64,000 nt of DNA from Thalassia testudinum (Eukaryota; Streptophyta; Magnoliopsida; Alismatales; Hydrocharitaceae): positions 14,266,501 to 14,330,500 of the forward strand of contig JAZHRO010000024.1 in the NCBI GenBank assembly GCA_037157565.1, read 5' to 3'. The translations under genes were made by a program, and so were the position numbers. Shown one piece after another: positions 2,991 to 42,461 of this stretch (positions are counted from its first letter, which is position 1; each line of letters begins with the position of its first letter). The notes under the pieces were generated by a model. That model was given only the letters and a program-made list of their open reading frames with translations, searched no databases and had not been told where the DNA came from.

Positions 2991-2993
2991 TTT

Positions 2994-3011
2994 TGGCGCC
3001 GTTGCCAGGGA
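2994..3011 (+). other. Primer-binding site of B (tRNA-Asp)
   Basis: TGGCGCCGTTGCCAGGGA lies three bases after the LTR end. It is complementary to the 3' end of plant tRNA-Asp(GUC) with one mismatch (A where the site in A and F has G). Asp-primed initiation is typical of the Athila group of Ty3/gypsy elements. Confidence 0.9.
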
Positions 3012-3687
3012 GCAACGTGCAATTTATCACTAGTCTCTACATTCTGTTTGATCATATTGAACAATAACTTGCCCTACTTTGCTTTGTTGTGATCTTGCAG
3101 GTATTTCACCAGAAGATCCCTCCCGCAAGTCAACTACTCCAGGGCAAGTAATTTCTTTTCTTTCTTAAACCATCTGCTAATCCTTGAAAGACAAAAGGAA
3201 GAAATTAATTTAGGAATCAATTGCCTTCTTTCTATAGTAATCACCATCTTTAGGGCAAATGTTCCCTGATTTTGCGAAAATTTTTCAAATCTTCTTGAAG
3301 TTGGAGCAATTTTTTTTAGATTCTATCCCACAAAATTCATGTACCTAATAGAAATCACACTTAATATTTGCGAACAACACACTTCTTGTTTTTGAGTCCA
3401 AAGAGAATTTTTGTGAAAAGAGGATTGGAAATAGAACCAAATTAGGGTTTCTATAGTAGGGCCTTGGAGTTCTAGTTCACACACACCTGTATAAAAGGAA
3501 ATGAACCCTCCCGCATCAGTGTGCTACCCAAGCCCTTGATTAAAGAGATCTAAACAAGACAAACCCTAAAAATTGAGCTCTAAAATCACTTGAATCTTAA
3601 AATCTTGGACCTAATAAATTGAGAGTCAAATCAGGGTGATCTCTAGATCCCAAGCCTAGAATCATTCTGCCATCTATAGGACAAGTC

Positions 3688-4030
3688 AGGTGAAGTTGAC
3701 CCCTTGGGTCAACCAACCTCCAAATTAGGTCACAACATCAAAACATCTAAAGTTCAAGTGAGAACCCTAAAGCACCTTTGAAATAAAAGTGGTAGACTTA
3801 AGAGGTCAAGGTTCCCATTCTGGTCTACCTGGATTCTCAGTGACAAGAGAGGTCGGGTGAGGGAAACCCTGTAACCCGTGGGGACGCTCTACCGTGTAGG
3901 GGTCTTTGCGGGACCCTCCCTCTCTGGCTGCCCAAGTAATTCTCAGGTGGACGATCTTCTGATCCAGGGGTATCATTCGCCCCGAACCTCCATAGTCATC
4001 CAAACATTTTTGGGTGTCCTGATTAGGTCA
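3688..4030 (+). promoter_or_regulatory. Conserved untranslated leader shared by B and F
   Basis: This segment is nearly the same as 39,122-39,478 in element F, although the coding regions that follow are unrelated. It includes a stem-loop (GTTGACC, short loop, GGTCAAC) near 3,694-3,712 and a strongly conserved block from about 3,820 to 4,025. The position between primer site and ORF fits a packaging or dimerisation signal or a translational leader. That role is inferred; the conservation is seen. Confidence 0.75.
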
Positions 4031-4182
4031 AAAACATCTCCAGTCCCTCATCTTTTCTCTTTAGAGCACACACATACATTTTCAGTGGGACTCGTTATTC
4101 AGATCTAATCGCTTCATAACTTGATTCTACATCTTGATTAAAACTCTGATTCTACATCTTGATTCCACCACCTAATCCAAAT

Positions 4183-5824
4183 ATGTAGCCAAACCACTTA
4201 GGACTACCATTCAAGAAACCTGAATATCGGAGATCCATGAGAGATAAGATGATTGAGGATGCCCTGAAATTCTATGAAAAAGAAGAAACCTCAATACCGG
4301 TAGAAAACATTAAGGTTGATGTCCCAACAACCATAACCTTTATCATAACTTGTGCCCAAGTACTATTGGCAGAAGCCACAAAAGGATCAACCCGTGACTT
4401 GCTCATCATAGGATACATTGAGATAGAAAAACTGCACAATCTTGAATACCTTCAATGCATGACAAATCCTCGACTTTGGAAGCAACACCAAGATGATCTT
4501 GAAAAATGGGAAGAGATAATGAGATTATTAAAACAAATTATCGACCAGAAATACCCGTATATACCACAAACAGAGGATGAACCATCTTGGAACAACATCG
4601 AGGATCAATCCGATCTCGGGTTTAAGGCACAAAATGGTTGTGGATTCCCAACCTAGATGGAGCACAATGTGTTTGATAACGAAGAAGGTTGGGAAACTCC
4701 AATTGCAGGAAAACACCATGTTGAGCCCACTCTAGACCATGAATCACCAAGCTTAGAATCCCAAAACTCCTGCAATCATGAGAGTATAACTGAACCTCTC
4801 GAGGGTGTAAATTCCATCCCTTATTCTGATAAGGTGACCCTCAAAGGTTATTCGGACCTAGATTCTAGTAATTCAACCCACATCCTAAGCCCAGAATCTA
4901 GAGCTGAAACCTACTAGGAAGATTTCAAGGCCCCATATGAGGAGGATCAAATTTTCAATGAATATGATTTTGGGCCTCTATTTAATGAATATCCTTTGCC
5001 AACATCCTCAGAAGAATCAATCGATTTTTCGGAAGTCATGCCAATTTACGATACAGAAACTGAGGAGTTGGACGAGAGGGGTTTCAATTGGATCTGCCCA
5101 ACCAGCTTAGAGCCTGAGCTTCTACCAGATAAGGACACCATTTTAAGCTCAGAATTAACATCTAGGCTAGACCCCAGTCAGGCTACTGAAGCTACAGCAT
5201 ATGATTTATTCTATAGTGGAACTCATGATCTTGAATCTCATTCAGATTTTTGCAAACTCTCCGACGATTTCGAATCTGACTAGAACATCGGAGAAAATCT
5301 GCTTCTTGATTATAACAATCCAATTCTCATTGAAGCCACCTCTTCCATACATACAGAACTGATCAAAACCCATTCTTTACCCCGACCCGCAACCGGACTC
5401 AATTTCTATTCTGATTCACTCTCACTGAGCCGTTTGCAAATGATTCAACGCCACATCTATCCGGGTATCGGATATCGATTAGACTGAAAAATAAGAGCCA
5501 TCATTCTCTGATCACCCCTATAGGATTTCCATACCATGCACTGATTATTTTTTGGAACCCTACTCTGACAAGGCTGATTCGACCCAGCCTAAACCTGAGT
5601 TTTCACTTCCATATCCATCCGAGCCACATTGCATATGGTGGGTTCCGCATTTGTTGATCTACATCTATCAACCCACCAGACTGATTGGGTTTGGGCTGCA
5701 TCATCAGCCTATTGATCTTAACAAGCACCTGGTTGGACCAACCAGGCTCTTAATCAAGGTGCTTGTTTTACAAAACTCCACTGATTTGACCACTCCCTCT
5801 CCACCCCATGTTCTACTTGGCTGA
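4183..5824 (+). pseudogene. Broken ORF of unknown function in element B
   Basis: One long frame from an ATG at 4,183 to a TGA at 5,485 is interrupted by in-frame TAG codons at 4,186, 4,654, 4,915 and 5,281. It then continues in another frame (5,552-5,824). The usable first start is the ATG at 4,237. Predicted character: a helix-rich first 140 residues (including KQHQDDLEKWEEIMRLLKQI), then a long acidic Ser/Glu/Asp-rich middle, then a C-terminal part with RLIGFGLHHQP. That motif and the order of regions match the intact ORF of element A (11,874-13,676). I recognise no domain. It sits where gag begins in the related element F, directly after the shared leader. All four premature stops are TAG, as expected if CAG codons decayed by cytosine deamination. 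Confidence 0.7.
5720..5767 (+). other. Double stem-loop at the end of the B ORF
   Basis: An outer 11-bp perfect stem (AACAAGCACCT with AGGTGCTTGTT) encloses a 9-bp perfect stem (CCTGGTTGG, one A, CCAACCAGG). Element A has different but equally strong stems at the matching place (13,439-13,475). Function unknown; it could be an RNA structure at the ORF end. Confidence 0.6.
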
Positions 5825-7390
5825 AGGCGTTGAATTTAGCGCTTAACAGGAGGCAACCCGTCATTCCAAAAAATAGAGACCCGTCTGATTATTTGTCTAT
5901 ACTCCACGTCAATTGCACCTTGAGTTCAACCTTAGACAGTTGATCCCACCTCTGGTACACGTATCAGTCATTTTTGACTCATTCACCCACCCGATGTATC
6001 ATGTTCTAAGTCCCTGACTTTAACACTATTTCACACCCTCTGTTTACAATGAGGACATAGGAGGGCGATAAAGTGCATACATACAGAACCAAGAAAAACT
6101 CAAAAGGATTCTCACAAAAAAATTCACATATGTCAAAAACACAAAAAATTGAAAAATTATGAAAAAGAACAAAAGACGGAGGAGGAAGGAAATTTTGTGA
6201 GCCACATAATCATAAGGAGGAGAAAAAGAGTAAAAAAATGGCAAAAAGGAGCACAAAATGAAAAAGAAAAAAAGAGATAGTCATTAGTAAGAGATTAAGG
6301 AATTAACCAAAGTTCTAGATCACATCAAGGAAAAGAGAAAAATAAAAGAAAAGTGCTAAGGAGACACAAAAAGAGATTAGCAGGGACGCTGATCTTAGGC
6401 CTCTTAGGCTAGATTCTTTGGCTTAAAAATTCACGTATCCGCTAAGATCTAGATAATCCTCAAGAGGTTGGGGAAAATGTGAAGCTTAAGTATTAGGTCC
6501 AAGGCTTAGGAAGTATTCGGCCTCGTTAACTGACCTTCGATTTGCGAGATTCGGTAACCTAAGCACCCCAATCCACACACAATCTGGTTCAGTGCGCATA
6601 AATATCAAAATCACGCAAAAAGCATTTCAATATTCTGAAAAGGTCACCTAGATTAGGAGCGGCCGATCAACACAAGTTGATTTGGACAAGTTCCCTGTAC
6701 GGAGAGGCGGGAAATTCCCCTTGAAGATGCGTAACACATCATCTCCTTGGTGCTTGTCTCTCAGGATATTTAAATATCCTACCGGGGGCATGTGAGCACT
6801 TTGCTGGTTCAGATACCATGGGTGGCATTATCACGAAATGTCGATTGCCAGGGTCTAAATTCAGCCACGAGACGCCATGGGCGAGATTATCTCAAAATCT
6901 CGAAAGTCCGAGTTCTGGGGGTTGCCATTGGCGGTACTATCTCGAAGCATCGATTGCCAGGGACCCTTGAGGATTGATGATGGGGACGAGGAATCCGATA
7001 CAGGCCATGTTGAGAAGCCAATCTGAAGCTAGAAATAAAAAAAATGAGAGAGAAAACTCTTCAAACAAATAAATCTTTTCTTTCTCTCTTACAAAAACGC
7101 ACTGCAAACTGAACCTAGGCTAAAAATGTCTCAAGCACGGGTGCTTTAACCGTGGAGTCCAACAAACCCTAGGATAGTTTCTGCGGGCCTTAAAAACCTT
7201 TGCGGAAGGCTGAGGCTAAAGTGGGTCAGGTCCGGATTTTGGTTGATACTTGAGTACCTTTAGGCCTACTGCCGCCATTCTGACCTAATCACAAAAGAAA
7301 AAGAAAAGCACTTATTATAACTGATGACAGACACTCAGGGTCTAGAACAGAAGTTAAAACCTTGAAATTTTGCTAAGGGACTAGTAAATG
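5825..7390 (+). other. Non-coding 3' internal region of element B
   Basis: No ORF of note. It holds a segment with ACAGGAGGCAACCC (about 5,845) and an ACAATGAGGAC word near 6,047, both of a kind found after the coding region in Athila-type elements. It also holds an A/G-rich stretch (6,060-6,380) and a short tandem repeat at 6,816-6,962. The stretch just before the polypurine tract (AGGGACTAGTAAA, about 7,377) is shared with element A. Confidence 0.55.
6816..6962 (+). repeat. Three-copy short tandem repeat in element B
   Basis: Three diverged units of about 38 bp start at 6,816, 6,875 and 6,925. Each begins CCAT followed by GGGTGG, GGGCGA or TGGCGG, and contains an ATTATC or ACTATC word and a TCGA core; the first and third end GATTGCCAGGG. 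Element A has a different two-copy repeat in the corresponding region. Confidence 0.6.
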
Positions 7391-7391
7391 C

Positions 7392-7405
7392 TAGGCATGG
7401 GGGCA
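7392..7405 (+). other. Polypurine tract of element B
   Basis: TAGGCATGGGGGCA immediately precedes the 3' LTR start at 7,406. The same sequence type (AGGCATGGGGGTA) precedes the 3' LTR of element A. This is the expected plus-strand priming site. Confidence 0.85.
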
Positions 7406-8882
7406 TGATGAGAGCCTCATCACGAAACCTAACTAGTTCATTTTGACCTAAGAAAGAGAATAAGAGCTCCAACATAATCAAGAGAAGGGCTTAATTGAAG
7501 GAATAAGTGTTCTGAGAAGAAAACATGAAATAAAGGTTAAAACCGTAATTTTACTATTGTAGTACATAAATGGGATTTCTCAGAGGCAAAACATATGTCA
7601 AATGATCTGAATAAGATAAAAAGTGGGTTGGTTCAATCAGAAATGGGTTCATGTGCAATCCAGGAATTAAATGACATCCGGTAACCCTAAAACAAACCCA
7701 CTTAATTCAACAAGTTTCTGGTCAGGATAAAAATCAAGTAAACCCTCTAAAATTCATGAAAAAATATCTCCTAGGATTTAGAACCTTCAATCTGACCTTT
7801 GGAACCTATTTTGACCTAGATTAGAGTCCTAGCTCATTAATTCACCTAATTTGGGTTTTTGTGCAAAAAATCTAGTCAAACGTGGTCAAACCTAAAATCC
7901 AACTTCACCATTGGATTCCTTAGGTCCAAATTAGGTTTGTACCAAAATTTGGACCTAAGGGGAGGTCATCTTGACCTACTTTGCAAATTAGTACACCCAA
8001 TTACATCTTAGCCCCTATCTTTTGAAAACCATTACATAAACCACCCTAACTTCCTCACCACTCTTAAAAACAGATCCCTCTGCCATTAATGGTGAGAAAT
8101 CCTACTCCGGTGAGGAATAGAGAGGGAATACTCCCTGATTCCTCAGAGATCTCCTCCCAGATTTGGAAGGGAGATTCTCTGAGGAATTCCCTTCCATCTG
8201 AACTCGATCCTAATCCCTTATTTGCACCCAATCTCTCGTGCGAATGCACGAGAGATTTGGGTCACTTAATTGATTCCATCTCCGACAAGGATTCCCATGG
8301 TTGGAAGCTTGTCTTCCAATCACAAGAACCCCTGCCAATGCCTATAAATTGACCCTCAACTCCCACCGCACCTCCTCAACTCGACTTGGTCGGAATTCCA
8401 TATCAATTTCTACTTTTTCTCCTTGAGCCAAGTGGTCCAACAAGCTCCGGCGAGCCTTCCTCCTCTCTCGTCACTCTGCCACAATACCAATGGCAGAGCT
8501 GTCCTCCCCATCCTCCTCCGCATCGCACAACACCCGCGCGAGCGCCCCAAGCCCCATCGTCGCCGCCGTCTCCCTCCACTGGATGCCATCTTCTCCGGCA
8601 ACAGCAAGTACTGCCAGCCGCCCTCTCTCCCCCTTCGTCCACTTAATTAGGTTAAAACCGTTCGTCTCTTTCCCCTCTTCAATTCCCCTCAACCTATTTC
8701 ACAAAACACCCCTCGACCGCCACTGTCCACCGCCATCGTCCCCATCTTCGACCAACCTCCTACAAGACGCACCCGTCGTTCCACAACTCCACACGTCTCG
8801 CCACCAACCCCACAACCTCACCACACTCCACTGAACATCATCCACCCACTCACAGACCACCTAAACCACCACAATCGCCCCC
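7406..8882 (+). repeat. 3' LTR of element B, first part
   Basis: Starts TGATGAGAGCCTCATCA like the 5' LTR and runs to the CCCCC (8,878-8,882) that was duplicated by insertion of element A. It carries the hairpin at 8,230-8,257 and a TATA-like box at 8,343-8,349 that is missing from the 5' LTR. The LTR resumes at 16,692. Confidence 0.92.
8343..8349 (+). promoter_or_regulatory. TATA box in the B 3' LTR
   Basis: TATAAAT lies where the related F LTR has TATATAAG (36,760). The matching place in the B 5' LTR (around 1,029) has lost these bases, so only the 3' copy keeps a recognisable core promoter. Confidence 0.6.
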
Positions 8883-9414
8883 GGATGTAAACACATTTAC
8901 ACTACTTAAAATGTCTATTTATGCATGTTCTTAAGCATAGGATTGCATTTCATGATATAAATATTGCATTACATGCATCATCTTGCATTTAGAGTAGTTT
9001 GAATAAAATGGAGGTTAATTGTCTCCTTTTATGTGCTTGGACAGGGCAAATATTTTATCAGGGCCTCGGATCAAAGATCCAACCGTATGGATATGATCAG
9101 GGCGACGATTGGAGTTCAACGACTCCAAGATCGCCCTAATCAGGCATCCGTAGCATCAGATAGAGACCGGGGAACCCTAGAAGATCAAGGGCCAGGATGG
9201 TATAAATCCACACTTCAGATGGAAAATCCGACCACACGGATGAATTCGGATCGACGATCGCAGCCGAACGACACAAAAATCGAGTCAATCCGACATCCGT
9301 GGCACCATCTACAACTTCCAGAAGATGGACGGCCAAGATGGCGCCACGTGGCGCCATCCCAGCCGCCCAATCGGCCGCAGGAGTCTTGTGAAGACCGCGC
9401 ACCGTCTCCTCTCC

Positions 9415-9438
9415 GCCGTTGGATCTCGATCCAACGGC
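9415..9438 (+). other. 11-bp dyad in the A LTR
   Basis: GCCGTTGGATC, two bases, GATCCAACGGC: a perfect inverted repeat, repeated in the 3' LTR near 15,460. Related solo LTRs keep the dyad with paired changes (about 28,100 in C2 and about 52,083 in C3). Confidence 0.8.
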
Positions 9439-9807
9439 TGCGGTCGCTCGCGCTTAAAAGCGTCCGCGCGACCATTTCGCCCGCGTAGCGCAGCGGCGAC
9501 GCAGCTGCGGGCGAAGCGGAGGTCGCGGGTTCGAGCCGCGGTGAGGGGGTGAAAGGCGCGGGCGAGCGGGCGCGCACGAGCGTCAGATGAAGATCCAACG
9601 GCTGCGCGCGCTCAATCAGGACGACGCGCGATTGGACGCCGGGCGTAACGCGCGATCACACGCGGGCGGTGCGCTACGCAGCGGGCGCGGACGCGATCTA
9701 AGCCGTCCGATCTCGCGATCGGACGGCTGAAAATCAAGCGACGTGTGTAGGCATTACGCGCGCGGCCAGCCGAGCGGGCGCGCGTGGGCGCGACGGCGAC
9801 GTCGGGG

Positions 9808-9837
9808 CTTTAGCGACGGTTTTATCCGTCACTAAAG
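9808..9837 (+). other. Dyad upstream of the TATA box in the A LTR
   Basis: CTTTAGCGACGG and CCGTCACTAAAG form a 12-bp inverted repeat with one mismatch, about 57 bp before the TATA box. Solo LTRs C2 (27,618-27,647) and C3 (51,638-51,667) carry the same arms with unrelated loops. C1 has lost one arm. Confidence 0.75.
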
Positions 9838-9894
9838 ACCCCTTATTTATTATTTTGAAGATGTAATGTCCATTTTGCCCCCACTCCTTGCAAC

Positions 9895-9901
9895 TATAAA
9901 A
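9895..9901 (+). promoter_or_regulatory. TATA box of the A 5' LTR
   Basis: CTATAAAAGGAGACC is a canonical plant TATA context, identical at 15,940-15,946 in the 3' LTR. It fits the start of the genomic RNA a few tens of bases downstream. Confidence 0.75.
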
Positions 9902-10645
9902 GGAGACCCCCTCCATACGAAATTTTCATCCCTTCCTTCTCCTCTCTACCTCTCCAAAGCTCAAGAGAAGCTTGTCCCACGCCCGGGATGCTTCTCGCGA
10001 GATAAAGTCCAAATTTTCGTCCCCCTTCGGAAGTGGATCCCGCGACGACGACGGCATGCTGCTTCGTTCCCGTTCTTCTGCTTCGTCCTCCTTCGTCCCG
10101 CTTCGTTCTCCTTCGTCCAGGCGTCGTCCCGTCCGGCTCGTCCTCCAAGCGACCGTCGAGGAGGATTCTCTCTCCCTATTCTTTTTACTGCTTTCTAGTA
10201 TAGATTTACTGCTTTCTAGAGTAGTCTATTCGTCCTCCGAGCGATCGTCGAGGAGGGCATTTCTCCCTCCATTCTTTTAATGCTTTCTAGAGTAATTGTT
10301 CTATTTTTTCTAGTTGTAACGAAAGAACTCTTTTATGATAAATTCCTTGTCTATTCTACATCTCATTTTGATTTCCATGTATAGTATTCTTTCTCTCTCT
10401 CTTACTCCCTCTCTCTCTTTTATTTGTTGTAGATACTTAGATAGTTTAAATTGAATTTCTTCGTGACAAAATAAAAAGAAACGCGAAGTTTTTAAATCAA
10501 ATGTTCGCCTCCCTATGTTCGACCCGGAATTCTTATTTCGATATAAATTTTATTTGTTGAACTCGAATCCTTCGCTTTCGAACTACAACGACGGGTTTTC
10601 CAAAACCAAACACGTTAGCGTAGGTTCGTAATTCGTTCAACATTT

Positions 10646-10663
10646 TGGCGCCGTTGCCGGGGA
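10646..10663 (+). other. Primer-binding site of A (tRNA-Asp)
   Basis: TGGCGCCGTTGCCGGGGA is a perfect complement of the 18 bases at the 3' end of plant tRNA-Asp(GUC), three bases after the LTR. Confidence 0.93.
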
Positions 10664-11873
10664 GGCAACGATCTTTGATTTCTCTTCACGTTTTGTAACT
10701 TACAAATCATTTACCTCACTTTTCTCCTTTCTTATTGTAATTGCAGGTACTCTTTTAAGGCAAGCAAAAGCGGTAGATTGGAGTAAAGTGCTGTGAAAGG
10801 TTTTGTAAGTTATCATCCATTCTTTCCCCCTCCATAGATTTCATTCGCCACATTGAATCCAAATTCCAATTAACCTAGGTGTTTGCATAAATCCTAGGAA
10901 TAGTTTGGTTGTTTGGATTCTCACTCACATTCATTCCACCTTCATTTATATAAAAAAAAAAAGTAAAAAGATAATTTTGTGGGGTAATTTTCAACAAATA
11001 CACAATGTACACCCACATTTAAAGGCACTTAACCAAATTGATTTGTTTCTACTCAACTGGGTTCTAATCTGTGGGACCAGTACACATAAAGCAACACATA
11101 AAAGAGTAGAAATCATTCTAAGTTAACCATCTTTGTGTGCCTAACTTAGTGGTGCATTTGAGGCCAATTGTTTGAGTTGATTGGGCCGCACCACTTCAAA
11201 TAAAATTAACTCATCAAGTAGCTGCCAATTAGGTTCAACTCTTAGGGATCTACCAGGCACTCCACATTCTTTTTAAACTTTAAAGGAAAATATCTTCACC
11301 TGTGCTTGCAAAACCTGATGTGCCAATGAAACTTGATTGAAAACACCTAAAGTTGAATCCTAAAAGCTACTAAGCAAGATTTGAACCTTAAAATTCACCA
11401 CATCAAAAATAATCTTGCTTGAAAACCACTGGTTGTGCACGCACACACAAAGCAATCAATCATTAAGGGCACAACCCATTTAAAGGGCCCATCACATTCC
11501 AAAGCACATTCAAACCTAGCCCTAAATAAAACAGAGTAGACGTTGGCCTTAAGGATTGGACTCGCTCTTCAGAACTCAGAACGAGATTATTTTCGATTAG
11601 TCTGTTTCTACTGTTCAATCTGATGTCTAGCTAGGGGAGCAGAGTCAAACGATCGCGGCTGGGGGGTACACTAGGAACCGGAGGCGCAAGCCGAAGGAAG
11701 AACCTTCTCCCCAGTCCCTCCTTCTAACTGGTTGGATTGAACAGACAGAAGTAGATCAAATCGTTCCTTTATCTCAAGACAGGTTTTGGGAGTCTGTAGG
11801 TCTGTAGGCTAACCCATTTAAGGACAGGTTTGATTGTTTGTATTGCAGGGCACCTTTCTTCCTCCTGTGTCTC
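10664..11873 (+). other. Leader region of element A
   Basis: About 1.2 kb without a convincing ORF. It includes a stretch near 11,550-11,720 with GGGGGGTACACTAGG. This differs from the B/F leader, so the two LTR families have different leaders. A pyrimidine/T-rich tract ending in TATTGCAG at 11,847 resembles a 3' splice site just before the main ORF. Confidence 0.5.
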
Positions 11874-13676
11874 ATGAATCCTTCCACATATTTCACGCAT
11901 TCCCGCTCTTTCCCTCCTGTTGTAAATTATCCTCAACATGACAATTATCCCAACTCGTATTGTAATCGACCATCAGTTAGTTGGGATAATTCGGATTGGG
12001 GATACAATTCCGGACCCCCGTGTTTAGGGTCTAACCCTGAACACTTTGATTCTCAATTCTATCCTTCTCAGAGTTGCATCGATTATAGATCGTCCTCCTT
12101 TCATGAACAACCTAATGCGATCTACAATCAAGAAGGATACACTGATCCTTACCCATCCTCTGATTTCACTGCCTTTAGGTCATCACCATCCTTTGAACAT
12201 TCTGAAATGACCTATTTTCAGGAAGGGTATAACGAATCTCAATTCGTTAATTCCTCTGCTTTGATGTCAAACCCGCCCAATCCTGAACCAACTCATTTGG
12301 TTCAGGTTAATCAGGTTCAAGATAAGGTTCTGGCTAACTTGAGAAATATCATACAATCTTTAGAAGTTCAGCCAATACCTTGCATTGAGAGATTGGAGCC
12401 CTTGATTGAAATGATTGATGATTTAAACAAGTCTTTGTTGGATTGGCTCCAGGACGTTAATGATAAGAACCCGGGTGAGTTTCTACTTGGGAAATTAGCG
12501 AAATTGAGGATGAGGTTCGTGGTTGCTTTGGTTCAATCTTGGGATGATTCCCAGGATGAACCCTCTTCAGGAAAGCCAAAGACAGAACCCGCTCAGGCAC
12601 CTGTTGGGGGGAACACGTATTACGAGGCTGACCAGATTGAATTAAAACAACCAATTAAGGATGATCTGATTTCTTCACCTGAGATCCCTGAGCCAGGTTA
12701 CGAGAAAACGTATGTCTCCTGGGAACACAAAGTGACAACTGATTTTGGGACATACATCGATACGGATCCTGATTTCTTTGATGGTGAAGATTCAAGTTGC
12801 GAAGTCTCACACGAGTTTTCAGAACACGATTTTTGTGAGACGATTGGGCCTGAGGAATCTGATAGATCATTTGATAGCCCAATAACTGAGGAAACTGATC
12901 TTATTAGGGCACACGATACGGATCCAGAATCGCATTTTCTGGAGGAATTAATTCAATGCCCTGATTATCAGTTACACCCTGTTGAGCTTATTGATGATTC
13001 TAATTCTGAGATAATTAGACCCAAGTCAATTTTGATTTTGCCACATCATCTAGACTTGGAGATTTCAGACGGGGGGATGAATATACAAGAGGTCATGGAA
13101 TTTGATATGCCGAATGAGGAGGATAGGAGCTGGGAAATTCTGATTTGGGAAGTCAATTTTGGAGGAAATGGAAGATTGAGTCGAAGGGTTCCTTTTAAGC
13201 TGAAACCATCAAATCAGAACCCTTACGACATTTGTTTCGAGGATGTCAAACTCAAGCACACATTTAACGATTATCCTTTTGAGCTTCAATTCTCTGTAAC
13301 CCGACATTTTGGCCTTGGGTTGCATCCTCACAAATCGCAGGCCCGACCCCGCTTGCATTCTGATTTTAGGTTTTGGGTAATTTTTATCCAGAACCTAAGA
13401 TATTCTCGATTATGGGGTGTGGGTCTGCACCACAATCTGGTCCACATCTGTGGACCTCTGCTGACAGGTCAGAGGATTCTTCTGTTCATTCTAATTCTGA
13501 CCTGCACATGTGAATTCTTCATTTCTTTTCTTTGTATAGTGTGCCTAGTTGAAGGCACTAAACTCAGCACATATACAGTTCTTTTTCATTTTCATCTCGG
13601 AGCGGACCCAATATCCACGCAATTCAGGTGCTTTCTACGCTTTTCCACTCTGTTTTATGTCTTTTTAATACAATGA
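11874..13676 (+). CDS. Intact 600-residue ORF of unknown function in element A
   Basis: I chose the ATG at 11,874; the frame is open 12 codons further upstream but has no earlier ATG there. The stop is TGA at 13,674. Regions by residue: 1-128 rich in Tyr, Phe, Ser, Pro and Asn with two copies of an NQEGY/FQEGY motif; 147-222 probably helical (containing NLRNIIQSLE and DDLNKSLLDWLQDV); 223-428 strongly acidic; 434-460 basic; 505-525 with RLWGVGLHHN; 534-558 very hydrophobic and possibly membrane-spanning. I see no zinc knuckle, DTG/DSG-type protease motif, YxDD motif or integrase motif, so it is not gag or pol. A decayed relative occupies the same slot in element B. The hydrophobic tail could be read as env-like, but the evidence is weak. 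Long intact frame in a young copy alone does not prove function; the relative in B is the stronger argument. Confidence 0.75.
   Translation: MNPSTYFTHSRSFPPVVNYPQHDNYPNSYCNRPSVSWDNSDWGYNSGPPCLGSNPEHFDSQFYPSQSCIDYRSSSFHEQPNAIYNQEGYTDPYPSSDFTAFRSSPSFEHSEMTYFQEGYNESQFVNSSALMSNPPNPEPTHLVQVNQVQDKVLANLRNIIQSLEVQPIPCIERLEPLIEMIDDLNKSLLDWLQDVNDKNPGEFLLGKLAKLRMRFVVALVQSWDDSQDEPSSGKPKTEPAQAPVGGNTYYEADQIELKQPIKDDLISSPEIPEPGYEKTYVSWEHKVTTDFGTYIDTDPDFFDGEDSSCEVSHEFSEHDFCETIGPEESDRSFDSPITEETDLIRAHDTDPESHFLEELIQCPDYQLHPVELIDDSNSEIIRPKSILILPHHLDLEISDGGMNIQEVMEFDMPNEEDRSWEILIWEVNFGGNGRLSRRVPFKLKPSNQNPYDICFEDVKLKHTFNDYPFELQFSVTRHFGLGLHPHKSQARPRLHSDFRFWVIFIQNLRYSRLWGVGLHHNLVHICGPLLTGQRILLFILILTCTCEFFISFLCIVCLVEGTKLSTYTVLFHFHLGADPISTQFRCFLRFSTLFYVFLIQ
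13439..13475 (+). other. Two adjacent stem-loops near the end of the A ORF
   Basis: GGTCCACA, TC, TGTGGACC (8-bp perfect stem) overlaps by two bases a second stem CCTCTG with CAGAGG. They follow the codons for GVGLHHN, the same place as the double stem-loop of element B, though the sequences differ. Confidence 0.55.
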
Positions 13677-14912
13677 GGACATTGCATTAGATAGGCATGG
13701 GGGGATGGATATTTATCTTTGAATTCATTCGTCAGCTCCGTAGATTTGTTTTATTTTATATAAAAAAAAAAAAATCAAAATTAGGAAAGAGAATTTGGGT
13801 TTAAGAAAATTTTCGATCTTAAGAAATACTATATTATGTTCTGAACACAAAGACCCTTCAGGTCTTTGGACTTAATCAGCCCGTATATCCACTAAAATGT
13901 GGATTTGTTTTTCGAATTCTCGCCAACTTGAATTTTATTTTAATTGGAGTAAATAAGTTTGGGTGATAAGTACACGACTTATCAACCCGCCCTCTGATGT
14001 GAGGGAATTTTGAGTCTTAAGCATCTACATACTTTCTTTGCACTGACCCGTTATTTGGCGATTTTAATGGAATTGGGTAGCTAATGAACCTTCTAGGGTG
14101 ATATGGCTGGCAAGTTATCGTGGGTAACAGCCCATAGGTAGGTTGTCCAGAGCCCAGTCACTGACCTTTCTCTTTTTGCTGCCTTTAGGTAAATCTTAGA
14201 CCAGGGAAGCCACCTACTTAAAAAAAAAAAAAAAAAAGAAAAAAAAATCAAAAAGGAGAAAAGAACAAAAAGAAATAAGCCACACTTCGCCGCACGAGTA
14301 TGGCTGGCAAGTTGTCGGTGGTAACAGCTCATCGACCGGTTGTCCAGAACCCAGCTCAGAAAATGCACTAAAAATTCCCAAAACACTTAGGAGGAAGTGG
14401 AGAAGTAGAATAAATCGGGGAGATATACACTGGATTCACCCTTGTGTTGACCCCGTTAAAAAAAATAATAATAAAAGTAGGGAGAAAGCTACCGGTTGTA
14501 AAGATACACCTTTAGGCAGAATTCTTTTTGAGGTCACCTAGAGGCGTAGAAATCCGAAGTCCGTTCTAATTGCCGGTCAACGAGTCTATCACAATCACAA
14601 TAAGATGCTTAAAACTTAGGGTTCTCATCAAATCTTGGGTGAGTTGAATGGCCGTAGAAAGCCACTCTTAAACCCTAAAATTTGAAAATCCAAAAAAAAA
14701 AAGAGAGTAAAAACAGAAAAAGAAATTTTTCTTTGAATAAGGCGAGGCTTGAGGCGGTCTGCATTTTGGCTGATACCCGGGCACTGTTGAGTCTTTGAAA
14801 GTTCAGTTCTTAAGTAGACAATTTCTTAATGATTGAAAATAACTCAGGTCCAAATAATCTAACCTAATTCTTTTATAAATAGCATATAGTTTTTTCTAGG
14901 GACTAGCAAAAG
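13677..14912 (+). other. Non-coding 3' internal region of element A
   Basis: AT-rich with several A-runs and no ORF. ACAATGAGGACATTGCA at 13,670 matches a word found after the coding part of Athila-type elements. A second AGGCATGGGGGG (about 13,695) looks like an extra polypurine tract. A 55-57 bp direct repeat lies at 14,103-14,157 and 14,299-14,355. Confidence 0.55.
14103..14355 (+). repeat. Spaced direct repeat in element A
   Basis: Two copies of about 56 bp (14,103-14,157 and 14,299-14,355), both beginning TATGGCTGGCAAGTT and ending TTGTCCAGA followed by CCCAG, are separated by about 140 bp that include an A-rich run. Confidence 0.7.
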
Positions 14913-14927
14913 ATAGGCATGGGGGTA
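14913..14927 (+). other. Polypurine tract of element A
   Basis: TAGGCATGGGGGTA lies directly before the 3' LTR start TGATGTAAACAC at 14,928, preceded by GGGACTAGCAAAAGA, which element B also has in near-identical form. Confidence 0.85.
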
Positions 14928-16686
14928 TGATGTAAACACATTTACACTACTTAAAATGTCTATTTATGCATGTTCTTAAGCATAGGATTGCATTTCATGA
15001 TATAAATATTGCATTACATGCATCATCTTGCATTTAGAGTAGTTTGAATAAAATGGAGGTTAATTGTCTCCTTTTATGTGCTTGGACAGGGCAAATATTT
15101 TATCGGGGCCTCGGATCAAAGATCCAACCGTATGGATATGATCAGGGTGACGATTGGAGTTCAACGACTCCAAGATCGCCCTAATCAGGCATCCGTAGCA
15201 TCAGATAGAGACCGGGGAACCCTAGAAGATCAAGTGCCAGGATGGTGTAAATCCACACTTCAGATGGAAAATCCGACCACACGGATGAATTCGGATCGAC
15301 GATCGCAGCCGAACGACACAAAAATCGAGTCAATCCGACATCCGTGGCACCATCTACAACTTCCAGAAGATGGACGGCCAAGATGGCGCCACGTGGCGCC
15401 ATCCCAGCCGCCCAATCGGCTGCAGGAGTCTTGTGAAGACCGCGCACCGTCTCCTCTCCGCCGTTGGATCTCGATCCAACGGCTGCGGTCGCTCGCGCTT
15501 AAAAGCGTCCGCGCGACCATTTCGCCCGCGTAGCGCAGCGGCGACGCAGCTGCGGGCGAAGCGGAGGTCGCGGGCTTGAGCCGCGGTGAGGGGGTGAAAG
15601 GCGCGGGCGAGCGGGCGCGCACGAGCGTCAGATGAAGATCCAACAGCTGCGCGCGCTCAATCAGGACGACGCGCGATTGGACGCCGGGCGTAACGCGCGA
15701 TCACACGCGGGCGGTGCGCTACGCAGCGGGCGCGGACGCGATCTAAGCCGTCCGATCTCGCGATCGGACGGCTGAAAATCAAGCGACGTGCGTAGGCGTT
15801 ACGCGCGCGGCCAGCCGAGCGGGCGTGCGTGGGCGCGACGGCGACGTCGGGGCTTTAGCGACGGTTTTATCCGTCACTAAAGACCCCTTATTTATTATTT
15901 TGAAGATGTAATGTCCATTTTGCCCCCACTCCTTGCAACTATAAAAGGAGACCCCCTCCATACGAAATTTTCATCCCTTCCTTCTCCTCTCTACCTCTCC
16001 AAAGCTCAAGAGAAGCTTGTCCCACACCCGGGATGCTTCTCGCGAGATAAAGTCCAAATTTTCGTCCCCCTTTGGAAGTGGATCCCGCGACGACGACGGC
16101 GTGCTGCTTCGTTCCCGTTCTTCTGCTTCGTCCTCCTTCGTCCCGCTTCGTTCTCCTTCGTCCAGGCGTCGTCCCGTCCGACTCGTCCTCCAAGCGACCG
16201 TCGAGGAGGATTCTCTCTCCCTATTCTTTTTACTGCTTTCTAGTATAGATTTACTACTTTCTAGAGTAGTCTATTCGTCCTCCGAGCGATCGTCGAGGAG
16301 GGCATTTCTCCCTCCATTCTTTTAATGCTTTCTAGAGTAATTGTTCTATTTTTTCTAGTTGTAACGAAAGAACTCTTTTATGATAAATTCCTTGTCTATT
16401 CTACATCTCATTTTGATTTCCATGTATAGTATTCTTTCTCTCTCTCTTACTCCCTCTCTCTCTTTTATTTGTTGTAGATACTTAGATAGTTTAAATTGAA
16501 TTTCTTCGTGACAAAATAAAAAGAAATGCGAAGTTTTTAAATCAAACGTTCGCCTCCCTGTGTTCGACCGGAATTCTTATTTCGGTATAAATTTTATTTG
16601 TTGAACTCGAATCCTTCGCTTTCGAACTACAACGACGGGTTTTCCAAAACCAAACACGTTAGCGTAGGTTCGTAATTCGTTCAACA
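14928..16686 (+). repeat. 3' LTR of element A
   Basis: 1,759 bp, from TGATGTAAACAC to GTTCAACA. By eye 21 substitutions and one indel separate it from the 5' LTR, and 19 of the 21 are transitions. TATA box at 15,940-15,946. Confidence 0.95.
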
Positions 16687-18118
16687 CCCCCCGACCTAAC
16701 CCATCAATCCGACCACAAAGCGACCTAGGCACGCACGCCTAGGCCACCCCGTGGCCTGCCACCTACCACCTCACCTTCGCCGTGACACGGTGAAGGTCCT
16801 CCTATGGTCTGATAGAGCCGCAAGGCCCCTTTTGTGTCGTGCAAGATCTGAGCACCAGTCGCCATTAGTGACGGCTCGAGGAGGTCGAAAGCTTGCTCCA
16901 GGCTAAAGCGCTTCAGGGTCCCAAGTCCAGCAGGTTCGGGGAAGTCTCGTGCAGTCAGCTGTCCCAGCAATTGGTGCTGCGAGGCCTGCAGCTGCAGCAA
17001 TTGGACGGAAGATCTCCTGCGGGCGCACGAGCAAAAGCAGTGGAACATTAGTCCCACCTCGTGAATCTGTGAGTGAGGTGCGCACAATAAGTTGATTTTG
17101 TGTTCTTAGCCCTTTGCCTCGAGACACACATGGGGTGAGGTCCCTCACCTATACACGCCACATCCGTGATTTCATCCCGCTAACCTGGCAACCCGACCCG
17201 ACTATCCTCCTGAGCACTCCTCGTGCACCACACCCACGCAGGTGTGCCTGGACCCGGGCACGCGACCCGACCCGATTACCCGGCTCTAGGAGAGCGTACT
17301 GAAGAGTGATATACAGAGAGAGAGATGTGGGTGTGGGTAGAGGGGTAGGTTTTGCTCTCTTTGGTTTGTGCAGGGAAGGAGAAGGAGAAGTGAAGCTGAC
17401 ACTTAGTTGCAGAGGAAAAAGAGAAGGAAAGACAAGGTAGAAGGAAGAGGCGAAGCCAAAAAGAGAAAGGAAGTCAGAGAGCTAAGAAGAAGAAAGAAAG
17501 AGAAGGAAAGACAAGCAGAAGTAGAAGAAGAAGAAAAGCTGAAGCCAAAGAGAAGAAGAAGTCAGAGAGCTAAGGCTGAAGAAGGAAGAAGAAGAAAGAA
17601 AGAAAGTGAAGCTGAGCCAAGGAAAGAAGAAGAAGAAGACCCACAGGGAAAAAGGAGAAAGACACCGTAGAAAAGAGAGACAAGGCAGAAGATAGAGGAA
17701 AATAAGAAGAAGAAGAAAGGCAAGAGAGTTGCAGAGAAGAAAGAAGAAGCACACGGCCAAAGAAGAACAGTAGAAAAAGAGGAAAATCAGAGAAAGAAAG
17801 TCAGAAGAAGAAGGAGAAAGCAGACAAGAGAAGAAAGAAAACATCTTTTTAAGACGTCTGATCTCATGATCAGACGTCTAATTTCTCTATTTTTGCCACA
17901 ATTAACTTTTAAACTCATGTATATACATTCTGAATTAAGTTTTGAGTAATTAAGTGTTCAATTACATTATTAAGATTAGTGAATAAATTCCAATTGCTCC
18001 CTGTGTTCGACCTCGGATACTTATGTTTTCGAGTAATAAATTCTTATTTATTGACAATGCTTGGTCACCTATACTACGATGCAACTAACTGTTAAAACAC
18101 GATCAAGCCGCGTGAACA
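16687..18118 (+). repeat. 3' LTR of element B, second part
   Basis: Continues the LTR interrupted at 8,882; it aligns with 1,554-2,990 of the 5' LTR. It contains the purine tract (about 17,310-17,840), a perfect 12-bp hairpin at 17,852-17,879 and the end GTGAACA at 18,118, followed by the CTCTC duplication. Confidence 0.92.
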
Positions 18119-24250: not shown

Positions 24251-24264
24251 TTTTTATGAATTAT

Positions 24265-38570: not shown

Positions 38571-39121
38571 GCAACGGGCACTTGTAAAGCTTTTGAGTAC
38601 AACTTTTCTATTTAATATCTGACTTAACTTCTCTTTTGTTGTGTTCAAACAGGGAAAGCAAAACAAAAAGGAAAGAATAGCAACTGCACAACAGACTGGA
38701 GCAGGTAATCTCCATAAGCCCTCCCCCTTAACCCTCTCACAATCTAAAAAACAAAAAAAAGGGAGAAGTCAACTTAGGGCTACCTGTCTTATATTTAGTA
38801 ACTCATCAAGTTGCCTGATTTTCATTTCAACATATTTTTGTCTGTCATCCAACTAAGGCAACTAGGGCTAAAACTTTCTTGATTGAGCCCTAGGTGCTAA
38901 ATTCTAAGGCAACTAAATTGGACCCATTAGATCCAAGTTAGGATTGCAAAGCTAGGGTTTTTAGAGACACATCTTCTCTAAAACAAAGAAACAAACTTTC
39001 CAAAAAGAAGTGTCCCTAAACCGTGTTTGAAAATATTTATACAAGAGGAACCCTAAGCAAATCAGGCTGATAATCAATTTGAATCATAAAAGGAAGGACC
39101 TAAAAGCTCTCAAAGGAACAA

Positions 39122-39478: not shown

Positions 39479-39509
39479 CACCTTCTAATCTCATCACATC
39501 TTCCGGTGC

Positions 39510-42461
39510 ATGTTTGGTAGGAGGTCCTTAAGACCACCTTTAAGACCTCCTCTAGAAATTCATTCTCGCCGAGGCCAAGCCTCGACGCCCTTGTTTGTGC
39601 AGCAACCCCACCACATAAATCTTTCATCTGATTCAGACCCTGATTCTCCTTCTTCTCCCATCATGGCACAACCCATTGAAGAGGAGAATAACCTTGAACA
39701 CCAACTTCAACGCTTGAACGATCTCTTTCAGAACTTTGTAAACCCACCACAGCGACCTATGATGCGAGATCACTATAATCCCGCTGCGGTGGCAATTGAA
39801 CCCCGAGTACGAATCCCAATTGGAGGACCCGATTCTGATCTAAAGCCCAATATGATTCATGCCATACCAAAGTTCCATGGGCTTAACTCTAAGGATCCAT
39901 TCCAACACATTAAACAACTCAAGCATCTGGCCCAGACTTTCGGGTCAGATGTACAAAACCGGGATATCCTACTCATGAAAATATTTTCGTTCTCCCTCTT
40001 GGACAAGGCCGCGCACTGGTATCAGACTCAGACCCGCCCGATCAACACTTGGGAGGAATTACAGTCCGAATTTTTGAAAAAATTCTTCCCTGTTGGCCGG
40101 ACGAATGCCTTGCGCCACCAGATCACTCATTTCACTCAACAACAGGGAGAACCTCTTCACGAAGCTTGGGATCGATTCCTAGATCTCATGCGAAAATGTC
40201 CCCATCACGGAGTTCCTAAGTGGGAACAAGTCCAGTCTTTTTACCAGGGACTCCGTGAGGATATTCGTCTAATCGTCAATGCAACATGTGGAGGAAACAT
40301 CATGGGCCAACACGAGGACACGGTGTGGGAGATTCTCGAAAATATGTGCGAGAACTCCATAAACAATGACTCCTTGGGCTTATTCGACAGGACGAATGCC
40401 CGCGCATCGACGAATCTAAGAGGGACACATGAGACGCAGGACCTGTCCACTTCTGTTGACCTGGAATTGATGGCCAGTCGGTTGGACAAGGTCTCTATCA
40501 TAGAAAAGAAGGTGGACGAGCTAACTCGACATTTGCAGCAAGCCACCTCTGCACAAAACTCTTTTGCACGACCTCCTCTGGCAAGGGAAACAGTGCAAAA
40601 CATCTATCACCAACCTGCCAAGGGGATGAGCCCCTATCCACCCCCGTCTACCTCCCAGACCGGAGTGACCTCCGATCCCGTCTACTCGAGTTGGGGGAAC
40701 TCTGAACCCTCGTATTCTGACTTTCCTGAGGTTTCTCAGAACTGCGAGGACCTCAACGCCATCCAGAACGACCCATACTCCAATACCTACAACCCTGGAT
40801 GGCGAAATCATCCTAACTTTCAGTGGGCGGGAAACTCTCAAAAACCACCATATCAACCCCGCCCACAAGCTCCTCGTCCATATCAGCCGCCTCAGCCTCG
40901 GCCCAATCCCACCTACCAATCTGGGCAAAATCAGGATCAATTGACTCTTATCCTTCAAACTCTGGCTGACATTCAAAAAACGAATGCGGCAATGCAACAA
41001 CAGCACAAGGACGAGATCACAGAGGTTCGCAACCAACTGGCCCAGATGGCAAATTCTCGCCAACCTGGCACCCTTCCTTCGCAACCTCTGCCCAACCCAA
41101 ATAATGTGCCGACCCAGAGGCGCATTATGAATCCAAATTCAGGCCACGCACATTTGATTTATCAGGCCCCTGCTACTCCATCACCAGACAGGATGGAGGC
41201 TTCTACATCTTATGCAGAATTTCAGCAGCAGCCACCTCTCCTACCTAACCCAAACCAAAGTCAGGCTGGATTAAACTCTGTAACAACACGTAGTGGTAAA
41301 ACAACACAAGACCCACATTATCTGAACCACTCCAAGCCTGATAATCGCCAAGACCCTAGGGTAGTCATCCAAGATACTACTGTCCCAGATCAAGAACCTG
41401 GACCTATCCTAGAGGAACCAGCTAGGATCCCATTTCCTGAGGCCTTGACCAAAGGAAAAAGGACAACCAAACCTGTGGCTCCTGAGGAGGATCTGGTCAA
41501 GCTCTTTGAACAGGTCCAGATAAACATCCCGTTGATGGATGCAATCCGCCACATACCGGCTTACGCAAGATTCTTGAAAGACATATGTACACCTAAACGT
41601 AAGCCGCGAACCAAGGATGGGAATCCGATTGTACTGTCAGAGCAAGCCAGCTCTGTCATCCTGAGCAAACTCCCACCCAAGGCTAAAGACCCAGGAACCC
41701 CCTTGATTTCTTGTAAAATTGGTGAAACCCAACTTGATAGAGCCCTACTAGACCTAGGTGCCTCCATAAATTTAATACCTACATCCCTCCTTGACCACCT
41801 TGAAGAATCTGAACTTAAACCCACTGAGGTGACATTGCAGTTAGCTGATCGATCCATCAAGTCACCCAAAGGAATACTCGAGGATGTCATTGTTAGGGTA
41901 CGAGATTTTTATTTCCCAGTGGACTTCATAGTACTGGACATGGATGCACCTAAGAACCCAAGGGACACACCAATCATATTAGGGAGACCCTTTCTGGCCA
42001 CTGCTAGGGCCAATATAAACTGCGAAGAGGGCCAGATAGAATTAAAATTTGGGAATCAAAATCTGAAGATCGACATTTTCAAAGCCCAACAAGGGATTAA
42101 TTGCGGGGTTATAGAGGAAATTTGTGATGTCAAAATCGTGGTTGATGAACTGCACATAGAGGACAACCTGATTATTTCTGATCAACCACTAGAAAATCAA
42201 AAACCGCTAACAGAGGAGTGCGAACACAATCTAGACACACCTATGACTCCTACCATTGCTCCCGATACAAACCCTGAACCACCCGCTGCTGCTGACAATC
42301 CTGTCATGGAACTCAAGCCCCTTCCTGAACATCTAAAATATGTCTTTTTGGATTCAAATCAAACGTTTCCTGTGATTATCAATTCTCGACTCACACCTGA
42401 CCAGGAACTCCGTTTGATTTCTGTTCTCCAGCAACATCGTAGAGCATTGGATGGACTCTAG
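39510..42461 (+). CDS. gag-protease polyprotein of element F (Athila-type)
   Basis: 983 codons without a stop; the ATG at 39,510 lies just after the conserved leader. Residues about 112-260 form a Ty3/gypsy capsid domain (Retrotrans_gag), with IPKFHGLNSKDPFQHIKQL, DKAAHWYQT, W..L..EFLKKFFP and the ITHFTQQQGEPLHEAWDRF motif. Residues about 320-350 look coiled; 360-580 are Pro/Gln-rich. There is no visible CCHC zinc knuckle. The aspartic protease core is DLGASINL with the catalytic Asp at about residue 748, and ILGRPFLA follows near 822. The ORF stops shortly before reverse transcriptase because of a one-base frame change near 42,447. The protein would assemble the particle and cut itself. As written the protein lacks polymerase and integrase. 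Confidence 0.9.
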   Translation: MFGRRSLRPPLRPPLEIHSRRGQASTPLFVQQPHHINLSSDSDPDSPSSPIMAQPIEEENNLEHQLQRLNDLFQNFVNPPQRPMMRDHYNPAAVAIEPRVRIPIGGPDSDLKPNMIHAIPKFHGLNSKDPFQHIKQLKHLAQTFGSDVQNRDILLMKIFSFSLLDKAAHWYQTQTRPINTWEELQSEFLKKFFPVGRTNALRHQITHFTQQQGEPLHEAWDRFLDLMRKCPHHGVPKWEQVQSFYQGLREDIRLIVNATCGGNIMGQHEDTVWEILENMCENSINNDSLGLFDRTNARASTNLRGTHETQDLSTSVDLELMASRLDKVSIIEKKVDELTRHLQQATSAQNSFARPPLARETVQNIYHQPAKGMSPYPPPSTSQTGVTSDPVYSSWGNSEPSYSDFPEVSQNCEDLNAIQNDPYSNTYNPGWRNHPNFQWAGNSQKPPYQPRPQAPRPYQPPQPRPNPTYQSGQNQDQLTLILQTLADIQKTNAAMQQQHKDEITEVRNQLAQMANSRQPGTLPSQPLPNPNNVPTQRRIMNPNSGHAHLIYQAPATPSPDRMEASTSYAEFQQQPPLLPNPNQSQAGLNSVTTRSGKTTQDPHYLNHSKPDNRQDPRVVIQDTTVPDQEPGPILEEPARIPFPEALTKGKRTTKPVAPEEDLVKLFEQVQINIPLMDAIRHIPAYARFLKDICTPKRKPRTKDGNPIVLSEQASSVILSKLPPKAKDPGTPLISCKIGETQLDRALLDLGASINLIPTSLLDHLEESELKPTEVTLQLADRSIKSPKGILEDVIVRVRDFYFPVDFIVLDMDAPKNPRDTPIILGRPFLATARANINCEEGQIELKFGNQNLKIDIFKAQQGINCGVIEEICDVKIVVDELHIEDNLIISDQPLENQKPLTEECEHNLDTPMTPTIAPDTNPEPPAAADNPVMELKPLPEHLKYVFLDSNQTFPVIINSRLTPDQELRLISVLQQHRRALDGL

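What the first reader, a model, noticed from the sequence alone, without database searches (positions are those of the whole stretch)
11874..13676. Young Athila-like element carrying an intact 600-codon ORF instead of gag-pol
Element A has near-identical LTRs, a perfect primer site and a clean target duplication, yet its only long ORF matches no retroelement protein I know. The protein has a Tyr/Ser/Asn-rich start with repeated QEGY motifs, a helical block, a long acidic middle, a GVGLHH motif and a hydrophobic tail. It may be an accessory or parasitic-element protein not previously described.
Basis: partly seen in the sequence, partly recalled or inferred. Interest (0 to 1): 0.75.

Follow-up and report, generated by a model that had tools for sequence, protein, structure and literature searches.

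The report
Conserved ORF replacing retrotransposon gag-pol genes
A plant jumping element that has lost its usual genes carries one intact, undescribed protein gene in their place, and related copies suggest that this gene is kept by selection, so such "parasite" elements may supply a protein of their own.

Summary
Element A (8883-16686) is a young LTR element: LTRs differ at 21 of 1759 sites, with an 18-nt tRNA-Asp-type primer site and a 5-bp duplication. Its one long internal ORF has 622 codons stop to stop; the longest in 500 shuffles was 227. Copies chosen without regard to the ORF carry it in 20 of 20 cases; 13 of 20 are open to at least residue 575. Sister families C (78-83% protein identity) and B (45-58%) carry it too. 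dN/dS between families is 0.37-0.41, against 0.59-0.92 in shifted frames. Element H, which A interrupts, is built like the autonomous Athila family G of this genome but has another ORF, 550-590 codons in relatives, where gag-pol should be, with a similar C-terminal GxGLHH module. No significant match in Pfam, NCBIfam or PDB, nor to G gag or pol. Best reading: pol-less Athila elements, moved by other Athilas' enzymes, that keep a fast-evolving helper protein. Its biochemical role is inferred, not shown.

The parts
8883..10642 (+). 5' LTR of element A (terminal T changed to G)
8878..8882 (.). target duplication, left copy CCCCC
   Evidence: empty-site paralogue window 1535-1585
10646..10663 (+). 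primer binding site TGGCGCCGTTGCCGGGGA; the stretch around it is 97% identical over 32 bp in autonomous Athila G
10643..11873 (+). leader; predicted donor GTAAGT at 10805 and acceptor TTGCAG ending 11848 would leave a 184-nt leader without ATG instead of 4 ATGs in 1228 nt (prediction only)
11874..13676 (+). 600-codon ORF in the place of gag-pol
11874..12278 (+). residues 1-135, 54% Y/N/S/Q/P, QEGY at 86 and 116
12294..12548 (+). residues 141-225, three helices in a low-confidence model; conserved in families B and C
12579..13193 (+). residues 236-440, acidic (net -37)
13368..13538 (+). residues 499-555, C-terminal module with GVGLHH (515-520) and hydrophobic stretch (535-553); similar module in element H
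13669..13704 (+). motif TACAATGAGGACATTGCA...AGGCATGGGGGG, overlapping the stop codon; found after pol in autonomous Athila G
14914..14927 (+). polypurine tract region; 43 nt across it 93% identical to G
14928..16686 (+). 3' LTR of element A
16687..16691 (.). target duplication, right copy CCCCC
2994..3011 (+). primer binding site of element H (5' LTR from about 93; 3' LTR from about 7406 to 8882, continued at 16687 to about 18100, split by element A)
   Evidence: ends read by eye
4189..5487 (+). element H: broken ORF, one frame with stops, in the place of gag-pol; related copies have open frames of up to 603 codons
5495..5824 (+). element H: C-terminal part of the ORF with GFGLHH
39489..42461 (+). 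gag-protease part of an autonomous Athila family (G); other copies have frames of up to 1905 codons
   Evidence: pol of another copy

Best explanation
Element A belongs to a lineage of pol-less Athila-type LTR retrotransposons in which the whole gag-pol block is replaced by one gene. Shown here: the ORF is present in every ORF-blind copy read and open in most of them, it is conserved under purifying selection in families A, C and B, and a diverged ORF with a similar C-terminal module sits exactly where gag-pol sits in family H. Inferred: the element RNA is copied and integrated by Gag, RT and integrase of autonomous Athilas such as G, through the shared PBS, PPT and 3' motif; the leader is spliced so that the ORF is the first reading frame; the protein, with its low-complexity Tyr-rich start, helical block and hydrophobic end, favours its own RNA, most likely as an assembly or packaging partner in the particles of the autonomous element.
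For: 20 of 20 ORF-blind copies carry the ORF, 13 of 20 open to residue 575. dN/dS A-B 0.37 and 0.385, A-C 0.41 and 0.37, within H 0.44. A/B gaps in the ORF are multiples of three in 10 of 15 and 11 of 15 cases, in the last 634 nt of the leader in 0 of 11 and 1 of 11; the only gap shared by several of 21 copies in the ORF is 9 nt. H shares leader (85%, 363 bp), 3' region (86%, 1290 bp) and LTR stretches with G but has the ORF instead of gag-pol. PBS region (32 bp, 97%), PPT (43 bp, 93%) and post-ORF motif (36 bp, 83%) shared by A and G. G has frames of 1905 codons and RT, RNase H and integrase domains. Very young copies exist: 0 to 2 LTR differences in 3 of 20.
Against: No autonomous element with A's own LTR was found; A and G LTRs are not alike beyond a weak match near the 3' end (E 0.013). 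Among copies the spectrum-corrected N/S is only 0.59-0.61 of neutral, weaker than between families. At DNA level the ORF is less conserved than the leader (65-73% against 79%). Some control frames come as low as 0.54-0.60, so part of the low dN/dS is method bias. The last 45 codons are less constrained (0.50-0.60). The acceptor AG is not at the same place in the two family-B copies. The assembly role has no direct evidence. Outside the C-terminal module A and H do not align beyond composition. No transcript or peptide data.
Confidence: 0.5

Rival explanations
1. The ORF is a diverged Athila env-like (third) gene that stayed behind when gag and pol were lost, still made from a spliced RNA.
For: A splice-acceptor-like pattern ends 25 nt before the ATG in 25 of 28 copies and a donor-like site is kept in 23 of 28; the ORF touches the post-pol motif. 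Hydrophobic C-terminus in A. Arabidopsis pol-less Athila families keep env under selection (PMC2410132), and env-like proteins share little sequence (PMC1142308, passages).
Against: The hydrophobic stretch is not conserved in H, whose best hydropathy is lower and near the N-terminus. In the one G copy read, the longest ORF between pol and 3' LTR is 137 codons. The pol-less Arabidopsis families in that paper have gag (they were defined by it); here no gag is detectable.
Confidence: 0.25
2. The ORF is a gag gene diverged beyond recognition.
For: It sits where gag starts; the Tyr/Asn-rich region resembles a stretch of G gag in composition (best local match there); known non-autonomous partners often keep gag (PMC5738225, passages; PMC11302176, passages).
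Against: No Pfam gag family for A or H at E up to 10, while G's gag hits Retrotrans_gag at 3.8e-21; hhalign against G gag-protease 0.12 for A and 0.56 for H; 20 of 300 and 60 of 300 shuffles do as well.
Confidence: 0.1
3. A host gene captured by an Athila element.
For: Replacement of gag-pol by an unrelated coding block could be transduction.
Against: No significant Pfam or PDB relative. The 20 ORF-blind copies all lie in elements, but a single host copy would be hidden by element copies in these searches, so this is weak.
Confidence: 0.08
4. A passenger ORF without function that happens to be open because copies are young.
For: 7 of 20 copies are broken before residue 575 or out of frame, and singletons include the neutral number of stops (6 against 6.1 expected).
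Against: dN/dS and gap pattern over family-level divergence (dS about 0.8 for A-B); families C and H have copies with frames of 500-603 codons.
Confidence: 0.05

Closest known systems
Pol-less Athila families of Arabidopsis (Marco and Marin 2008, PMC2410132)
   Same: Athila-type elements without pol, long-lived, with ORFs under purifying selection (omega about 0.2-0.4 in the pol-less families), presumably moved in trans
   Different: those have gag or gag+env; here neither gag nor pol is detectable and the remaining ORF matches nothing in the libraries searched
Sabrina/WHAM/Derami with BAGY2 in barley (PMC5738225, passages)
   Same: non-autonomous Athila-clade elements whose DNA likeness to the presumed partner is limited to LTR 3' end and PBS
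   Different: those carry gag or gag remnants, or nothing (Sabrina_B); no novel ORF in the passages read
Quinta with Cereba in Einkorn wheat (PMC11302176, passages)
   Same: non-autonomous partner that supplies a protein, including a domain of unknown function (DUF1)
   Different: centromere-specific elements of another kind; Quinta has a clear GAG
Additional ORFs (env-like, antisense) of plant LTR retrotransposons (Vicient and Casacuberta 2020, PMC7264820, part 1 of 3)
   Same: conserved extra ORF of unknown role
   Different: described as added to gag-pol, mostly between pol and 3' LTR; here it replaces gag-pol
LARD-type elements (recalled)
   Same: large pol-less LTR element moved in trans (recalled)
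   Different: LARDs are non-coding inside (recalled); this one has a conserved ORF

Membership tests
Athila lineage (Ty3/gypsy) | RT/integrase phylogeny | not testable with these tools
   element A has no pol
Athila lineage (Ty3/gypsy) | tRNA-Asp primer site close to the LTR | tested here: met
   TGGCGCCGTTGCCGGGGA, 3 nt after the LTR; same stretch in G; Diaspora and Calypso use tRNA-Asp (PMC1142308, passages). That these letters fit tRNA-Asp is recalled; no tRNA gene was compared
Athila lineage (Ty3/gypsy) | 3' signals shared with a gag-pol element of the same genome (G; called Athila from its overall likeness, recalled, no RT tree made) | tested here: met
   PPT 93% over 43 nt, post-ORF motif 83% over 36 nt
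non-autonomous Athila with gag or gag+env (Arabidopsis type) | gag present | tested here: not met
non-autonomous Athila with gag or gag+env (Arabidopsis type) | env homologue present | tested here: inconclusive
   no env sequence to compare; the G copy read has no long ORF after pol
autonomous/non-autonomous pair (criteria as in PMC11302176) | identical PBS and LTR termini, similar second LTR half | tested here: inconclusive
   A-G: PBS and TGATG start shared, LTR body not. H-G: PBS region, leader, 3' region and LTR stretches alike
LARD | non-coding internal region | tested here: not met
   ORF under selection
env-like third ORF | transmembrane segment conserved | tested here: inconclusive
   hydropathy 2.5 in A at 535-553; H best 1.64 at 46-64
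env-like third ORF | made from a spliced RNA | not testable with these tools
   splice-like sites only

The most novel reading that the evidence does not exclude
A class of retrotransposon gene not described before: a fast-evolving helper gene that has replaced gag-pol in at least two separately built pol-less Athila lineages (A/B/C and H) and lets them prosper on the enzymes of autonomous Athilas, so that two-component retrotransposition here uses a protein that is neither Gag, Pol nor Env.
Probability: 0.35. Interest if true: 0.75.

Novelty: new variant of a known kind. Interest (0 to 1): 0.55.

Why it matters
Non-autonomous LTR elements are abundant in large plant genomes and are usually seen as passive or as suppliers of Gag. 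A gene kept by selection in gag-less, pol-less elements would mean that such parasites act on their own behalf, and it makes testable how they win packaging or transport over their helpers.

Tried and rejected
Structure prediction from nine sequences gave mean pLDDT 27.5; no fold search was made with it. Pfam, NCBIfam and PDB gave no significant match for A or H; the best lines were 0.073 for A in Pfam, 0.16 for H in NCBIfam and 1.7-2 for A in PDB. The gag-like fragment beside copy L027 led to an old, decayed gag family (150 scored matches, longest open frame 512), not to a partner of A. A partner with A's LTR could not be sought well, because genome searches score only the best matches, which are A copies. 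The pol C-terminus of G as source of the ORF was rejected (170 of 300 shuffles as good for A and 156 of 300 for H; hhalign 0.15 for A). The script stopped with an error after the first B-B row (residues 1-275: 0.744, 95% 0.47-1.23), so the other B-B rows were not computed. Full-length A/H local alignment is explained by composition (16 of 1000 shuffles as good); only the C-terminal module counts, and its window was chosen after the motif was seen. Of twelve C-terminal A/C/P0003 versus H tests, eleven have 0-4 of 1000 shuffles as good and one 30 of 1000. Copy choice: 20 stretches covering ranks 2, 3 and 5-23 of the 40 places were fetched, so they are the best matches to the leader and lean to young copies. 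The 73 copies (61 without stops) were chosen by the ORF protein and are not used for intactness. One search counts 9 of 20 open to the very end; one search counts 13 of 20 open to residue 575. The pN/pS used 151 of 190 pairs of 20 open copies, 7 of them (the window copy included) from the ORF-based search. Window pieces of H against L043 and L044 gave 0.36-0.64 (six comparisons).

Full report
The thing itself. Element A lies at 8883-16686 with two LTRs that differ at 21 of 1759 aligned sites plus one gap (K 0.0121), a 5-bp duplication CCCCC, an 18-nt primer site of the tRNA-Asp type and a purine tract before the 3' LTR. With 1.5e-8 changes per site and year (the rate used in PMC2410132) it inserted about 0.40 million years ago. 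The site is inside the 3' LTR of another element, H; the matching undisturbed stretch at 1535-1585 shows the empty site. Between the LTRs there is one long ORF, 11874-13676, 622 codons stop to stop; 500 shuffles gave at most 227.

Copies. A search with 601 bases of the leader, blind to the ORF, listed 40 scored places (of 3427 unverified first-look candidates). Twenty stretches were fetched, the best-ranked ones; all 20 hold leader, full-length ORF and 3' region in the same order with LTR sequence around. Of the 20, 9 are open to the last codon and 13 are in frame and open to at least residue 575; 7 are not. LTR pairs of these 20 differ by K 0 to 0.0191, median 0.0069. Open copies tend to be younger, but not significantly (p 0.095). 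Among 21 aligned copies the only ORF gap shared by several is 9 nt long; five of six single-copy gaps break the frame. So copies seem to be born with an open frame and to decay afterwards. Five of the 20 share a stop at reference codon 583, so the extreme C-terminus is not needed.

Selection. Among the 20 copies, variants corrected for the mutation spectrum give N/S 0.59 of neutral for singletons and 0.61 for shared ones, with six stops against 6.1 expected among singletons: weak constraint at this depth. Uncorrected pN/pS among open copies is 0.34 (151 pairs). The stronger test is between families. Family B (L040, L041; 55% and 58% protein identity in the first ~280 residues, 45% and 48% in the rest that aligns) is old and broken; dN/dS A-B over residues 1-555 is 0.368 (0.285-0.464) and 0.385 (0.295-0.505), against 0.585-0.887 in the two shifted frames and 0.54-0.90 in the leader read as codons. 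B against B, which is decay, gives 0.744 (0.47-1.23; residues 1-275 only). Residues 556-600 give 0.50 and 0.60. Gaps between A and B in the ORF are multiples of three in 10 of 15 and 11 of 15 cases, in the last 634 nt of the leader in 0 of 11 and 1 of 11, in the 3' region in 1 of 13 and 0 of 6. Family C was met through metagenome protein P0003 (150 scored genome matches at 78-86%). Two copies were read: L046, open for 563 codons after a stop at residue 37, 82.8% identical over residues 1-600; L047, open for 500 codons, 77-78%. They give dN/dS 0.409 (0.29-0.59) and 0.373 (0.28-0.52), controls 0.60-0.92. At DNA level the ORF (65-73%) is less conserved between A and B than the leader (79%), so this is a fast-evolving protein.

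Element H. From about 93 to 18100 lies another pol-less element, split by A. G is a gag-pol family of this genome: gag-protease at 39489-42461 in the window (Pfam Retrotrans_gag 3.8e-21), RT, RNase H and integrase in another copy (L045), frames of 1905 codons among 88 scored copies. H shares with G the leader (85% over 363 bp, ending 14 nt before the gag frame opens), the 3' region (86% over 1290 bp) and stretches of LTR. Where G has gag-pol, H has a broken ORF; relatives have frames of 603 and 561 codons (L043, L044; 150 scored matches) with dN/dS 0.44 (0.32-0.63). H is thus a G-type element with gag-pol exchanged for another ORF. Its C-terminal part aligns with A's (BLASTP 4e-4 for the single comparison; hhalign E 0.0011 and 0.0019 but probability only 21% and 14%; 0 of 2000 shuffles as good; twelve further tests), at the same place in the protein. 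The rest of the two proteins does not align beyond composition.

What it is not. No significant Pfam, NCBIfam or PDB relative for A or H. Against G gag-protease 20 of 300 shuffles score as well for A and 60 of 300 for H, hhalign 0.12 and 0.56; against G pol 170 and 156 of 300, hhalign 0.15 for A. In a library of 5.8 billion proteins the listed relatives are without a functional name: P0002 (99% to some A copies), P0003-P0007 and H-like P0008-P0015, probably plant DNA in metagenome samples (inference).

How it probably works. The common primer site, purine tract and 3' motif suggest that Athila enzymes can copy A. The leader carries a donor-like site at 10805 (exact in 23 of 28 copies) and an acceptor-like site ending at 11848 (25 of 28); removing the piece would leave a 184-nt leader without ATG instead of four ATGs. 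In the two B copies the AG is not at this place. Splicing is a prediction. That a gene survives in an element that needs foreign enzymes implies that its product favours the RNA that encodes it, or is wanted by the pair. I hold an assembly or packaging partner most likely, an env-like remnant next. The AlphaFold model is too poor to decide.

What is known. PMC2410132 (four of six parts read) describes pol-less Athila families under selection, all with gag. PMC5738225 (passages) and PMC11302176 (passages) describe non-autonomous partners that keep gag or have no genes; Quinta adds a domain of unknown function to its GAG. PMC7264820 (first of three parts) reviews additional ORFs beside gag-pol; PMC1142308 (passages) describes an env-less Athila relative; PMC11963269 (passages) treats Retand, another lineage. 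The listings of seven full-text searches and the six papers opened showed no report of an ORF replacing gag-pol in Athila elements; subscription journals are mostly not held. I therefore call it a new variant of a known kind.

Noticed in passing
window 93-18100: Element H, a second pol-less Athila-type element split by A, with a broken ORF in place of gag-pol and a leader stretch 85% identical to the autonomous family G.
   Followed up: yes
window 22230-23935, about 24262-28742 and 50990-52640, minus strand: LTRs related to A's (about 73-78% identical) that look like solo LTRs by eye; the second is interrupted by a G-type LTR (about 24564-27053).
   Followed up: partly
L019: Copies of A in tandem sharing LTRs; one search lists three leaders about 6 kb apart on the same contig.
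   Followed up: no
window 10720-10830, 3070-3165, 38640-38760: A, H and G leaders seem to have a short stretch between an AG and a GTAA some 100-190 nt after the primer site, perhaps a small leader exon (by eye).
   Followed up: no
L021, L022, L025, L026 (and older L023): Copies share a stop at reference codon 583, four of them very young, so a slightly shortened protein is being amplified.
   Followed up: partly
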